Below, in pieces: positions 6,700-53,490 of a stretch of DNA of 58,937 nt. A program made the translations under genes and the position numbers. A model generated the notes under the pieces. That model had not been told where the DNA came from, did not search any database, and worked only from the letters and a program-made list of their open reading frames with translations. Location: NCBI GenBank assembly GCA_030699685.1, contig JAUYLJ010000016.1, positions 1-58,937 on the forward strand. The letters run 5' to 3'. This stretch comes from a bacterium (GTDB lineage: Bacteria; Patescibacteriota; Patescibacteriia; JAHIZJ01). How positions within the stretch are numbered: position 1 is the stretch's first letter; the number at the start of each line of letters is the position of its first letter.

Positions 6700-8192
<1,493 letters not shown>

Positions 8193-8355
8193 TGAGAATC
8201 GATAATCACTTGTGGCAATTACCGACATCCCATTCGACTCAAACAAACGATGTTTGTCTGAGGTTTGAGAATCCATTCGTTAGAATGTCTTCTCGATTTG
8301 TTCTGTAAGCCGATCTGTAGAAAACAGATGCAAGCTCACAGTCTGAATTCACGTT

Positions 8356-8379
8356 GAGCCTTTCTCGTCACTATTCGAA
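8356..8379 (-). other. 5' arm of pre-16S processing stem (leader)
   Basis: pairs with 6597-6618 over ~20 bp with one bulge and G-U pairs. Confidence 0.75.
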
Positions 8380-8438
8380 TGTCAAAAAGCTTTTTCTTCT
8401 ACTGGTGAAGCTCTCTCGATGTTGTTCGAGGCCTTCGG

Positions 8439-8488
8439 GAAGAAAAAACAGTGATCCCCGATAATTCAGAAACCGCTGTTTTTTCTTC
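8439..8488. other. Inverted repeat in 16S leader
   Basis: perfect 13-bp arms gaagaaaaaacag (8439-8451) / ctgttttttcttc (8476-8488). Confidence 0.8.
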
Positions 8489-8609
8489 TTCGTAAGGAAA
8501 GAACTTTGTTGAAAAGACTGATATGTTGCCGAATCCGTCTCCTCGAAAGGGTTACTTTTTAGCTTGTTTTTTGTATTTTTGGCGTGCACAGCTTGTCCAC
8601 ACCACATGT

Positions 8610-8638
8610 ACTATACGGTATTGCAGAAACAGTGTCAA
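8610..8638 (-). promoter_or_regulatory. Sigma70-like promoter for 16S unit
   Basis: minus strand TTGACA-17 nt-TATAGT. Confidence 0.8.
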
Positions 8639-8642
8639 GGGA

Positions 8643-9935
8643 TTATTCCGTTCCCAGGCTATAGCGCTGGTAGAAGACAATACCTCTGGCGGCTGTGATC
8701 AGGATAATGAGTCCTAGTCCGGCGATGATAGCCGAAAAATTGACGTAAGAAGTCAGGAATCCAATCACCAATATTGGTACTAATCCGAGGGAGTTAATGA
8801 TCGTATAGAGCCCGCCAAATACCCGCCCGCGCTCCTCGGCCGGCGTTCGTTCGTGCAAGGCCGTCTGAGCCGAGACAAGTATAAGGGGATCGGCGAATCC
8901 TGAAACGAAGGCCAGTGTGGCGATAAAACCGCGGAGGAAGGTGTCGGGAGAGATATGAAATCCGCCGTTGATCATGGCTGACTGGATATCAGGCCAGAAG
9001 GCGAGACCGAAAAGCGTCAAGCCGTCCAGCAATAGGCCCGCCGTAATCATGATGCTCTTGCTCGTCCTGTGTTTGATGCGGTTAGCGGTAATCACTCCGG
9101 CCATGGCACCGATTCCTAGGGGCAATATCAGAAGCAGGCTGATATCTTCAACATTGATTTTCAAAAAATCCTGGGCGAAGGCGGGAACAAGCGATAAAAA
9201 ACCGCGCTGAATACTGAACACTATAGCGAGTTGTAGAATAATAAAACGAATGATCCGATGAGCAAAAATAAATTTGATTCCGGAGATGAGGCGCTGCCAC
9301 ATGACACGCCAGCTGAATGCCTCCCTGAGTTTCTCCGAGTTTTTCTTCAAATGTTCCTGAAGTGGCGGGAGAAGCATGTTGAGCCCAACCGCCGATAGGT
9401 ACAAAATCATAATCATCACGAATGTCCAAATCGGGTTGGCATTCGCCAGTAGCGGGCCAGCCAAAGTGTAGCCCAGGAGAAACATGGCGTAATTCGTGAC
9501 GGAATACAGGCTGTTGGCCGTGAATAGGTGCTCTTTTGGCACGAGCGTGGGGATCGAGGCTACCTCAGCCGGGCTGAAAAACTGAGCTACCACGGCGATG
9601 GCAAAGGCGATTCCCAGCAGAACATAGGCATTGCTAATAAATAGTATCGCCACGAGGGAAATCAACAGGCGACCCAAATTGGACAAAAGTAATACCGTTT
9701 TACGATTATAGCTGTCGGCGACGACGCCGGCGAAAGCGGATAAAACGATGGGCGGGATACTGATCAGCACGATCAAAATACTGACAAAAGCGCTGGACTC
9801 AGTCAGTTCGTAAATAAGGATGACCAGGCTGAAGTTAAAAAAATTCTCTGCCAGCTTGGAGCTTACTTGCGCTCCCCAAAGCTTGAGGTAGTCGCGGTAT
9901 TGGAACAAAACAAAATATTTTTGCAATCCGGCCAT
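8643..9935 (-). CDS. MFS transporter
   Basis: 430 aa hydrophobic; FAGVVADSYNRKTVLLLSNLGRLLIS; ERTPAEERGRVFGGLYTIINSLG. Confidence 0.9.
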   Translation of the reverse strand: MAGLQKYFVLFQYRDYLKLWGAQVSSKLAENFFNFSLVILIYELTESSAFVSILIVLISIPPIVLSAFAGVVADSYNRKTVLLLSNLGRLLISLVAILFISNAYVLLGIAFAIAVVAQFFSPAEVASIPTLVPKEHLFTANSLYSVTNYAMFLLGYTLAGPLLANANPIWTFVMIMILYLSAVGLNMLLPPLQEHLKKNSEKLREAFSWRVMWQRLISGIKFIFAHRIIRFIILQLAIVFSIQRGFLSLVPAFAQDFLKINVEDISLLLILPLGIGAMAGVITANRIKHRTSKSIMITAGLLLDGLTLFGLAFWPDIQSAMINGGFHISPDTFLRGFIATLAFVSGFADPLILVSAQTALHERTPAEERGRVFGGLYTIINSLGLVPILVIGFLTSYVNFSAIIAGLGLIILITAARGIVFYQRYSLGTE

Positions 9936-25227: not shown

Positions 25228-25833
25228 AGAGAACCTCCTCGCGTTTCCGCGATTTTTGGTATTCAGTTGTCAAGGATCGTTCCTTGACGTGCTTCTGCCG
25301 GCCACGCTGGCCTGGTTGCATCAGATCCTCTGGTGCACGCTGGGCGTCTATCCATCATATAGATGGGCGACCAGCAGCCTCGGGGAAGAGATAGCACAAT
25401 GAACACCTGGGATGTGAGGCGGTGGTATGTTTGGATGAATTGTTGTGGCGGTTTCGCTACTGGCTCCCCGCTGCTCAGCTCCCGTTTTTTGGCGGAAATA
25501 AGCGACCAATTTGAGTCAGCGGATCATTACCTCACATCTCTTGCCAGCTTATACCCTTAAGGAAATTTTTGTCAAGAAGGAAGATGAGGGGTAACGGGAA
25601 ATTAAATAATCGTTTTTGTGAGCTTACCTGTGGAAAATTTAGGTAGTTTTTTGGACAATTCAAGCACGATCTTCCTCCCTGCTTACTTCATCCAAAGAAA
25701 TGGATATCGGTTTGAACCACGTTACTATTCATTCGGGATGTTCATCGAAGCTTTGGCGGATTATTCGCATTGGCTAAAGGAGTTAACATAACACCTAAAT
25801 TTATTACCGCTCCGTAAGCCTAGCTCTATGCGA

Positions 25834-50289: not shown

Positions 50290-51720
50290 TCAAACGAAGG
50301 TGGTTGCTTCTTCAGTCTCGGTTGCCTTCGGCGGGCTGAAGTGAGAATCAGCCTTTTGAGGTTTCTGGCGAAGAAGAAAGGTCAGCACCAAGGGCGGAAT
50401 CAGCGTAGTCAGTACCACCATGATGATGACTACTGAGAAGACCGTATCCGGCACCACTCCCAATGCCTGCCCGATAGTGATAAAGATCAGACCCACTTCT
50501 CCGCGCGGTACCATGCCCCAGCCTACCACCAGCCTGTTGCCCTTTCCCGCAGCCAGGCCAGCCACTAGCTTACCGATGAAAGCGGCTAGGGTGATGCCAA
50601 GCGCCATGAGCATGACCGCAGGATCGGCAAAGGTAGTCAGCTCCACCCCCATCGAAGTCCGTACGAAGAAAACCGGAACAAAGACATAGGCCAGGGGTTG
50701 AATCAGATCCTCAACATGCGAGTGATTGGCTTGATGGACCAGGGTGGCAAGCGACGTCCGTTGCTCTCTGCTCATTCCTTGAGTGGCGCTTTCGATGTCG
50801 CGACAGATCTTTGGAGAATCGAAGCTCCTGAAGTCGACGGGATCCAGGACAAGCCCAGCCGCGAAGGCTCCGACGATCGGTGCCAGACCGGCCACGCCCG
50901 CCACGTAAGAGGTGATCAGCCCGAAGCTTAGGGCGAAACAGAGCTTCATGCCGGGTCCAGTGTCAAGACGCGAGAAGAAGCGACTGATGTGGCCCGCGAA
51001 GAGCATTCCGAAAAGGATTGCTCCGGCCAGGAAGAGAAAGGCTTTGAAGAAGATGACACCTACGACCAACAAGCTGACTGATCCGGCCGTAACGATTGAT
51101 CTGACCACGGTGAGAAACAACAAACCGAATACGTCGTCAATCACCGCCGCCCCAGATACCAACTTGGCCGCGATCGATGATATTTGACCCAGATCTTCAA
51201 AGACGCGAGCGGTAATGCCGACGGAAGTGGCCGTCAATGTCGCGCCCAGGAACAGGTAGGTGTGAGCTTCGTATCCCGGCATGACCAGCGGGCCAACGAC
51301 TTTCCAACCCAGAACAAAGGGGACAATGACACCGATGATGGCGATCATAAGCGCCCGAAGGCCCACTGCCCGCATCTCCCGCAAGTTGGACTCCAGGCCT
51401 ATCTTGAAAAGCAGGAGCATTACCCCGAATTCCGACAGGAACCCGATAACCGCGTCGGTTTTCATGGGCTCCAGATAGTGGAACCCGATCAGGCCAAGGT
51501 TGCCCAGAAGTATTCCGACGAAGAGTTCGCCCAGAACTTCCGGTTGACGAAAGCGCTTGACGGCCGCTCCCGCAATCTTGGCTGACAGGATAATCAGCGC
51601 CAGCCAAAGCAGGGTAATTGCGGAGTGAGAGCCTATTTCCCCGTCCGAGGCTTGGGCGGGGGTATGGACGCCACATAGAAGAATAGCGGTGATAGAGAGC
51701 CAGAATTTCAGCCTGATCAT
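50290..51720 (-). CDS. CPA2-type cation:proton antiporter
   Basis: LGELFVGILLGNLGLIGFHYLEPMKTDAVIGFLSEFGVMLLLFKIGLESNLREM; GATLTATSVGITARVFEDLG; start at ATG 51720. Confidence 0.9.
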   Translation of the reverse strand: MIRLKFWLSITAILLCGVHTPAQASDGEIGSHSAITLLWLALIILSAKIAGAAVKRFRQPEVLGELFVGILLGNLGLIGFHYLEPMKTDAVIGFLSEFGVMLLLFKIGLESNLREMRAVGLRALMIAIIGVIVPFVLGWKVVGPLVMPGYEAHTYLFLGATLTATSVGITARVFEDLGQISSIAAKLVSGAAVIDDVFGLLFLTVVRSIVTAGSVSLLVVGVIFFKAFLFLAGAILFGMLFAGHISRFFSRLDTGPGMKLCFALSFGLITSYVAGVAGLAPIVGAFAAGLVLDPVDFRSFDSPKICRDIESATQGMSREQRTSLATLVHQANHSHVEDLIQPLAYVFVPVFFVRTSMGVELTTFADPAVMLMALGITLAAFIGKLVAGLAAGKGNRLVVGWGMVPRGEVGLIFITIGQALGVVPDTVFSVVIIMVVLTTLIPPLVLTFLLRQKPQKADSHFSPPKATETEEATTFV

Positions 51721-51971
51721 AGATTCCTTTCCAGGGGCTGTACCGAAAGTGAAAGAACATGCAGCTAACTTCCAGCGATAGTATACAGAATTTAGCCTAC
51801 TAGGCAAGCCTGGCAAAATCCGGATCAGTGGATAACCGGATAAAAAAGAACCCCGGGCGGTATTTTAATGGAGATAAATGGCTTTGTGGTCAAAGTAGAT
51901 GTCAGACGAAATGCTACTCCCGTATACAAACACGACTAGATGCATGATAACGGTTGTTTTTATGCAACGAA

Positions 51972-51989
51972 CATCGCGTCGCCAAAAGA
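51972..51989 (-). repeat. Displaced copy of queA 3' end (18-bp core)
   Basis: catcgcgtcgccaaaaga identical to 52477-52494; encodes SFGDAMFVA* on minus. Confidence 0.75.
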
Positions 51990-52017
51990 AGCGGTCAGTA
52001 TCATTGAAAAACAAAAA

Positions 52018-52040
52018 GGCCCTCGAATTAGCGAGCGGCC
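52018..52040 (-). terminator. Intrinsic terminator overlapping stop codon
   Basis: ggccctcgaattagcgagcggcc flanked by aaaaacaaaaa. Confidence 0.8.
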
Positions 52041-52378
52041 AGTCTTTCTACTTCTGTGCGTGAGCTGGACTCAGTGACTCCGAGACGACGCATAAGCTTC
52101 GCCTGCTCTTGTCTTTTCGTCTCGGTACACTCCGTGCAGCACTGTTTTCTAACAACGAGTGCCTGGGCGAGGCGCAGTACCACTCGAGAAGCGGTAACCG
52201 AACCAAGCGAAAAAGATCTTCCTTCTCCAGAAATTCTTCGGACGATCAGTTCGTGTTCGGCGACTGGGTTTTCTCCCTTCTGCTTACAGTAGTAGCACCT
52301 GGATCGAGACGGTCGTTCGTACACCTCAGCGCTGACTGAGAAGTTCCAACCTAAGTAAATGAGCTGGTATCTGTGCAC
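52028..52378 (-). CDS. Hypothetical Cys-rich (zinc-ribbon-like) small protein
   Basis: 116 aa; CYYC ... CCTEC pairs; own promoter TTGACA-17-TATTGT and terminator. Confidence 0.6.
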   Translation of the reverse strand: MHRYQLIYLGWNFSVSAEVYERPSRSRCYYCKQKGENPVAEHELIVRRISGEGRSFSLGSVTASRVVLRLAQALVVRKQCCTECTETKRQEQAKLMRRLGVTESSSRTEVERLAAR

Positions 52379-52464
52379 GTTTCCTCCTCATTCAGTCTAT
52401 TCTGAAACGCTTATCCAGAACCCGACACAATAACCAACATTCTATCACATGTCAAGTGTCGTGT

Positions 52465-53490
52465 TTATGTAATCAGCATCGCGTCGCCAAAAGAGTAGAA
52501 ACGATAGTGTTTTTTAATTGCTGTTTCGTAGGCTTTGAGGACTTTCGTCCGTCCAGCAAAGGCGGACACGAGTATGAACAAAGTTGATTTTGGCAAATGA
52601 AAGTTGGTGATCATGGCGTCAGTCATTTTGAATTTGTAGCCGGGTATGATGAAGATATTAGTTGACTGGCTGATTTGTTGATTCGTTAATTGGCGAGGCA
52701 GGCTTTCGAGCGTGCGAACGGTGGTGGTGCCGACAGCGATGATGCGCCGCCCCTCTCTTTTAGCTTTGACCAGCCGTTGATAAACCGCCTTTGACATCTC
52801 TAGATGTTCAGGATGCATTCGGTGACGTTCGATGGTCGTTTCTTTGACCGGCTGGAAGGTTCCGTAGCCGACGTGCAGCGTGACATATTCGATCTGGACG
52901 CCCAGCGTTCGTATGCGGTTCATGAGTCGATTCGTGAAATGAAAACCGGCAGTTGGCGCGGCCACTGATCCGGATTTTTTTGCGAACACTGTTTGATATT
53001 CTTTGAGATTGGAAAGGCGTTTAACGTACGGGGGCGTAGGAGCGGTACCGAGCCGATGGATAGCGGCTCGGAGTTTCGCGCCGGACCGGTTGAAACGAAT
53101 ATGCCAAGTGCCGTTGGTGAGGTGTTTGATAACAACTCCTTTCAGACCGCCAAACCTTTGTTTTTCCATGCTGATTTCAAGACCGACCCGCCGCCCTTTC
53201 CCGCCCAAGAGGCACTCCCAGGTATTCGCGCTGACAGGCTTGAGCAAAAACACTTCTATTTTTCCTCCACTTTCTTTTCGGGCATTGAGACGGGCCGGAA
53301 AGACTTTTGTATTATTCAAAACGAGTACGTCGCCTGATTTGAGATATTCAGTAATTTCAAAAAAATGCCGGTGACTGATCGCTCCGGTTTTTCGGTTGAG
53401 CACCAAAAGACGTGATTGATCGCGCGGCCGGACCGGTTTCTGGGCGATTCGATCAGGAGGAAGGTGAAAATCAAAAAGTGACAGTTTCAT
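52465..53490 (-). CDS. queA: S-adenosylmethionine:tRNA ribosyltransferase-isomerase
   Basis: MKLSLFDFHLPPDRIAQKPVRPRDQSRLLVL; PTAGFHFT; TLHVGYGTFQPV; NFHLPKSTLFILVSAFAG; RFYSFGDAMLI. Confidence 0.97.
   Translation of the reverse strand: MKLSLFDFHLPPDRIAQKPVRPRDQSRLLVLNRKTGAISHRHFFEITEYLKSGDVLVLNNTKVFPARLNARKESGGKIEVFLLKPVSANTWECLLGGKGRRVGLEISMEKQRFGGLKGVVIKHLTNGTWHIRFNRSGAKLRAAIHRLGTAPTPPYVKRLSNLKEYQTVFAKKSGSVAAPTAGFHFTNRLMNRIRTLGVQIEYVTLHVGYGTFQPVKETTIERHRMHPEHLEMSKAVYQRLVKAKREGRRIIAVGTTTVRTLESLPRQLTNQQISQSTNIFIIPGYKFKMTDAMITNFHLPKSTLFILVSAFAGRTKVLKAYETAIKKHYRFYSFGDAMLIT

What the first reader, a model, noticed from the sequence alone, without database searches (positions are those of the whole stretch)
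51972..52494. 505-bp single-gene unit bounded by two copies of the queA 3' end
The last codons of queA (SFGDAMLIT*) lie over the 18-mer catcgcgtcgccaaaaga at 52477-52494. Exactly 505 bp further downstream of queA the same 18-mer recurs (51972-51989), followed by a diverged but homologous tail encoding SFGDAMFVA*. Between them is one Cys-rich ORF with its own promoter and terminator. A restored gene end plus a displaced, slightly diverged old end is what site-specific insertion into a gene's 3' terminus produces, but there is no integrase. This may be a minimal cassette mobilised in trans, or a recombination scar.
Basis: partly seen in the sequence, partly recalled or inferred. Interest (0 to 1): 0.77.

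Follow-up and report, generated by a model that had tools for sequence, protein, structure and literature searches.

The report
Gene cassettes docked in queA's end
In this small-genome bacterium and at least nine relatives, foreign DNA (usually one gene, sometimes none) has been inserted into the very end of the queA gene, bringing a fresh gene end and pushing the old end downstream, which points to an unnoticed hot spot for swapping genes without the cassette carrying its own integrase.

Summary
The 18-mer occurs exactly twice in the window and in the whole genome, 505 bp apart. There is one queA, and nothing between the copies resembles queA except the displaced end, so the second copy is not a decayed paralogue. 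The same arrangement recurs at queA in nine other genomes of the class: a displaced queA end 87-2105 bp downstream, with unrelated cargo (Cys-rich protein, PemK toxin plus lipoprotein, TonB-like, DUF2079, HTH-like, or non-coding hairpins) and never an integrase. All displaced copies begin 14-33 nt before the end of the GDxM codons. Empty sites exist: a same-genus pair (G238 empty, G265 filled) and two queA haplotypes inside one MAG (G108). In G108 the filled haplotype also carries a foreign queA 3' half (~82% identity over ~510 bp), so the cassette there arrived by homologous import rather than simple integrase insertion. Differences in the shared core are mostly synonymous, so the new end came from another lineage. 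Best reading: a donor-end-carrying insertion at a recombination hot spot, spread by recombination at queA; the founding recombinase is unknown. An argF-like gene and topA show similar displaced ends. For the window itself no empty-site relative exists.

The parts
52465..53490 (-). queA (341 aa), the host gene whose 3' end is the insertion site
   Evidence: Pfam Queuosine_synth PF02547 E=2e-126; the only queA in the genome
52465..52494 (-). Current queA 3' end (SFGDAMLIT*), inferred to be the donor-supplied end
   Evidence: 18-mer core plus tail; comparison with displaced ends
52427..52455 (-). Promoter-like TTGACA-17-TATTGT directly after the queA stop
   Evidence: 10 of 12 consensus matches; same position as the promoter-like boxes seen in G094 and G014; consensus match only
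52028..52378 (-). Cargo ORF, 116 aa, CYYC / CCTEC motifs, orphan
   Evidence: single-sequence AlphaFold model pLDDT 59, not usable
52006..52040 (-). Terminator-like hairpin plus T-run overlapping the ORF end
   Evidence: fold -12.7 kcal/mol, z -1.8; not found by the consensus scan
51960..51989 (-). Displaced, older queA 3' end (SFGDAMFVA*), no queA sequence upstream of it
   Evidence: no tblastn hit to the rest of queA; similarity runs 18 nt left of the end of ATG and to just past the stop
50290..51816 (-). Na+/H+ exchanger gene that follows the displaced end (presumed original neighbour of queA)
   Evidence: PF00999 E=2e-53

Best explanation
The 505-bp unit is foreign DNA inserted into the last ~10 codons of queA. 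The incoming DNA supplied a new, functional queA end, one gene with its own promoter and terminator, and stops where the recipient's old queA end (now displaced) begins. Shown: the anatomy; its recurrence at the same queA position in ten genomes with unrelated cargo; empty sites in two lineages; no integrase in any unit; synonymous-biased divergence of the two ends. Inferred: because the cassette is flanked on both sides by queA sequence, any queA-bearing relative offers homology, so a cassette can spread by DNA uptake (all ten genomes tested encode ComEC) and recombination, replacing the resident queA end. The founding event that first placed the tight left boundary is most likely site-specific (an att-like core over codons F-Y-S-F-G-D-x-M), with the recombinase lost or acting in trans; that step is not shown.
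For: Recurrence: class-wide pattern search and loci give displaced ends at G002 (262 bp), G014 (915), G094 (780), G108 (1244), G120 (972), G140 (2105), G265 (87), G349 (90), G356 (296). Left boundary always 14-33 nt before the end of the ATG in a ~1,020-nt gene. Differences between current and displaced ends up to GDxM fall 5/1/16 on codon positions, 15 of 20 changed codons synonymous (G094 not included), so both ends evolved as real queA ends. Empty sites: G238, same genus as G265, has G265's post-insert gene directly after queA; in the G108 MAG contig C11 carries full queA whose last 99 bp equal C22's displaced end plus downstream, while C22 shares 118 identical bp with C11's queA, then diverges (~82% over the matched stretch) to the stop, then carries the cassette. 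Genera G094, G120, G140 of one family share the same downstream gene but carry different cargo. G000, G014 and G094 share the layout stop - promoter - ORF - terminator - queA end. ComEC in 10 of 10 genomes.
Against: No empty site or donor was found for the window's own unit. In G108 the displaced end is recipient sequence from its first bases, so the donor may not have carried a displaced end; then right-end illegitimate joining is possible. Two G108 haplotypes could be partly an assembly or binning effect. No common motif precedes the displaced core. No excision or circle evidence.
Confidence: 0.62

Rival explanations
1. Remnant of an integrase-borne element (prophage/IME): a tyrosine or serine recombinase integrated an element at an att site in queA's 3' end; deletion later removed the integrase and left a small scar with attL in queA and attR as the displaced end (a CIME).
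For: Tight left boundary over a ~25-nt core. Prophage-type elements do use this site elsewhere: a viral contig (L147) and an Oscillospiraceae MAG (L116) each have a large serine recombinase immediately 3' of queA. Serial insertions at an argF-like gene.
Against: No intact integrase-bearing element was found at queA in any class genome examined; the tyrosine recombinases in the positive genomes lie on other contigs or far from queA. Units are single intact genes or hairpins, not phage debris. G108's foreign queA 3' half is not expected from circle integration.
Confidence: 0.25
2. Homology-facilitated illegitimate recombination: incoming DNA recombines homologously within queA and its other end is joined illegitimately, at microhomology, inside the recipient's queA end.
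For: G108: left side foreign queA with a homologous crossover, right junction with little shared sequence. Known in naturally competent bacteria (PMC3240628 abstract).
Against: Ten of ten right junctions fall within about 20 nt of each other, although joining anywhere in queA or beyond would be tolerated.
Confidence: 0.2
3. Ordinary tandem duplication of the queA end plus downstream gene, followed by divergence.
For: The two tails and a few bases past the stop are similar. A tandem duplication with a duplicated gene end does exist at a hydrogenase locus of G120.
Against: The sequence after the displaced end is not a copy of the insert; homology ends at or near the stop codon; empty sites and unrelated cargo in relatives.
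Confidence: 0.04
4. Chance resemblance or a decayed full-length queA paralogue.
For: None found.
Against: 0.07 matches expected; no queA similarity upstream of the displaced end; one queA in the genome; recurrence in nine other genomes.
Confidence: 0.01

Closest known systems
CIMEs and genomic islands integrated at the 3' end of protein-coding genes (general knowledge)
   Same: Direct repeats of the gene end flank the insert; the target gene is restored by element-borne sequence; CIMEs lack the integrase
   Different: 87-2105 bp and often a single gene; no autonomous partner element found at this site in the class; foreign queA half co-imported in G108
Insertion with long target duplication (Nobusato et al. 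2000, Gene 259:99-108, cited in PMC4978471)
   Same: Small gene units flanked by direct repeats of the target gene in a naturally competent bacterium (H. pylori)
   Different: Here homology stops at or near the stop codon and the two ends differ mostly at synonymous sites, so the new end is donor-derived, not a copy of the recipient's target; cargo is not a restriction-modification system
Homology-facilitated illegitimate recombination in transformation (PMC3240628)
   Same: One homologous and one non-homologous junction would give the G108 structure
   Different: The right junction here is confined to one short core
Integron gene cassettes (general knowledge)
   Same: Single-gene units at one docking site with variable cargo; serial array at an argF-like gene
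   Different: The repeated site is the end of a host protein gene, cassettes carry their own promoter-like boxes, no integrase beside the array
Prophage or element with a large serine recombinase at queA (L147, L116)
   Same: Uses the queA 3' end as its site
   Different: Carries its recombinase; no second queA end found within 8.2 kb in L116

Membership tests
Integrase-type island / CIME at a gene 3' end | Insert bounded by direct repeats with the gene end restored | tested here: met
Integrase-type island / CIME at a gene 3' end | Fixed integration position | tested here: met
   left boundary 14-33 nt before the end of ATG in 10 of 10
Integrase-type island / CIME at a gene 3' end | Integrase in the element, or a partner autonomous element at the same site | tested here: not met
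   none in any insert; PF00589 genes lie elsewhere; searched in 10 genomes only
Integrase-type island / CIME at a gene 3' end | Target gene upstream of the core unchanged by insertion | tested here: not met
   G108: about 510 bp of queA upstream of the core is foreign; untestable in G000
Integrase-type island / CIME at a gene 3' end | Excised circle or precise excision | not testable with these tools
   needs PCR or long reads
Insertion with long target duplication | Flanking direct repeats of target sequence | tested here: met
Insertion with long target duplication | Repeat is a copy of the recipient's own target, not tied to the stop codon | tested here: not met
   homology ends at or near the stop; synonymous bias 5/1/16
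Tandem duplication | Region after the displaced end is homologous to the insert | tested here: not met
Integron cassette | attC site and IntI integrase | not tested
   no dedicated attC or IntI search was made
Homologous-recombination import | Donor-derived host-gene tract adjoining the cassette | tested here: met
   in G108; inconclusive for G000, sliding queA identity shows no clear step

The most novel reading that the evidence does not exclude
A class of small-genome, naturally transformable bacteria uses conserved gene 3' ends (queA foremost, also an argF-like gene and topA) as docking sites for integrase-less cassettes. Each cassette carries a replacement gene end, so it repairs the host gene on entry and at the same time provides the homology that lets it move on by transformation.
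Probability: 0.33. Interest if true: 0.82.

Novelty: new variant of a known kind. Interest (0 to 1): 0.64.

Why it matters
It would give a concrete route by which very small genomes gain and swap genes without phages or plasmids, name a docking site (the queA 3' end) that can be monitored in any metagenome, and explain why assemblies break there. It also makes a testable prediction: DNA carrying queA-cassette-queA-end should transform an empty relative at a rate set by the short right-hand repeat.

Tried and rejected
Chance and decayed paralogue. Tandem duplication. Known structured RNA in the region: none. Cargo identity: no Pfam hit, marginal relatives only, unusable fold model, so no fold search was made. 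A third copy of the core in the own genome as attP: none. Recombination step inside the window's queA: none clear. Generality over ~1,100 ORF ends in 1.2 Mb: strong end duplications are about as frequent upstream as downstream and several are paralogues, so a genome-wide effect is NOT shown; only the argF-like gene and topA look like queA, with one weak case at G002 C1:175533. A 0-of-69 result in loci from other taxa (mostly Firmicutes) against ten in the class is suggestive, not significant, given how class loci were chosen. Viral-contig scans for attP-like queA ends gave one hit, L147. G060's two motif matches 8.5 kb apart are not a queA pair: only one of them lies in queA.

Full report
What was checked. 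The two 18-mers are exact, 505 bp apart, and unique in the genome. The current queA ends SFGDAMLIT*; the displaced copy ends SFGDAMFVA* and has no queA sequence upstream of its last ~6 codons. Within the window no other ORF end has a comparable second copy. The genome (1.15 Mb, 70 contigs) has one queA. Small genome size and the nearest named queA relatives (Candidatus Paceibacterota, Parcubacteria) suggest Patescibacteria; this is an inference.

Recurrence. A pattern for the GDxM end was searched in 381 genomes of the class and loci were read. Besides G000, same-strand displaced queA ends were found in G002 (262 bp core to core, non-coding), G014 (915, a 218-aa protein without Pfam match), G094 (780, a 143-aa HTH-like protein), G108 (1244, PemK/MazF-like plus a lipoprotein-like protein), G120 (972, TonB_C protein), G140 (2105, DUF2079), G265 (87, hairpins), G349 (90, hairpins homologous to G265's) and G356 (296, non-coding). 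G331 has an inverted copy 55 bp away. No insert holds a recombinase.

Position. Similarity between current and displaced ends starts 14-33 nt before the end of the ATG codon and ends around the stop codon. If the right junction could lie anywhere in the ~1,020-nt gene, ten such placements would be extremely unlikely (about 1e-14 for a 40-nt window). One caveat: the search needed the GGNGAY..ATG core to be present, so junctions further right would be missed; longer displaced pieces would have been found and were not.

Origin of the two ends. Over the nine pairs compared, differences up to the M codon fall 5/1/16 on codon positions and 15 of 20 changed codons are synonymous. A dead copy would not drift that way, so both sequences were functional queA ends in separate lineages. 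In the topA case of G002 the 121-bp repeat differs at three sites, all synonymous by inspection of the printed sequences.

Empty sites. G238, of the same genus as G265, has G265's post-insert gene directly behind queA. In the G108 MAG, contig C11 ends 99 bp into a sequence 100% identical to the displaced end plus downstream of C22, directly behind a complete queA. C22 itself starts with 118 bp identical to C11's queA, then diverges (82% over the 632-bp match as a whole) up to the stop and runs into the cassette. Read together: two haplotypes with the same flanks, one of which received a foreign queA 3' half plus cassette. G364 and G099 also show two queA-end alleles with different downstream sequence in one bin, and G001's contig breaks at the same place. 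Genera G094, G120 and G140 share the next conserved gene but hold different cargo at queA.

Architecture. In G000, G014 and G094 a TTGACA/TATAAT-like pair follows the queA stop within tens of bases, then one ORF on the queA strand, a hairpin with T-run, and the displaced end. Promoters and terminators are predictions.

Beyond queA. In three long contigs an argF-like carbamoyltransferase gene of G120 has two serial displaced ends, both starting at TTTYGACCAGGC, with a non-coding insert and a lipoprotein gene between them, and topA of G002 has one. Upstream controls are about as frequent as downstream hits overall, so this is a lead, not a statistic.

Mechanism. The insertion itself is well supported. 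How cassettes enter is not settled. The co-imported queA half in G108 and ComEC in all ten genomes tested favour uptake and homologous replacement; natural transformation through com genes has been shown in Saccharibacteria (PMC10633639). The tight boundary favours a site-specific origin, and queA is a real docking site for large serine recombinases elsewhere: L147 (viral contig; its recombinase is partly similar to Faecalibacterium phage FP_Brigit) and L116. The combined model is site-specific founding, then spread by recombination.

What is not shown. No empty site, donor or population polymorphism was available for the window's own unit; the function of the 116-aa protein is unknown; no excision was observed.

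Noticed in passing
L234-L266, G120:C1 about 524315-525560 (+): argF-like carbamoyltransferase gene followed by two serial displaced copies of its own 3' end, separating a non-coding insert and a lipoprotein gene with promoter- and terminator-like signals.
   Followed up: partly
L216-L217, G002:C1 18140-20760 (+): topA 3' end duplicated (121 bp, 97.5%) around a ~2.4-kb insert encoding a 459-aa lipoprotein-like protein; differences synonymous.
   Followed up: partly
L147 (whole contig) and L116 about 7577-9253: Large serine recombinase genes immediately 3' of queA in a viral contig and in an Oscillospiraceae MAG: queA looks like an attB for phage-type elements.
   Followed up: partly
L027 1244-1316 and L028 1193-1262: Homologous 87/90-bp inserts with hairpins whose stems changed on both sides (GAGG/CCTC to GGGG/CCCC), suggesting a conserved structured element.
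   Followed up: partly
L030 1175-1275: In G331 the queA end is followed by an inverted copy of itself, forming a long hairpin right after the gene.
   Followed up: no
L050/L051 (G364) and L052/L053 (G099): Two queA-end alleles with different downstream sequence in one MAG, contigs breaking at the site.
   Followed up: partly
G120:C1 hydrogenase locus (reverse-strand 515620): Hydrogenase large-subunit end and a hypA-like fragment duplicated in tandem with a 195-aa gene between.
   Followed up: no
window 25437-25543 (-): c-di-GMP-II-GAG riboswitch match, just over the gathering score.
   Followed up: no
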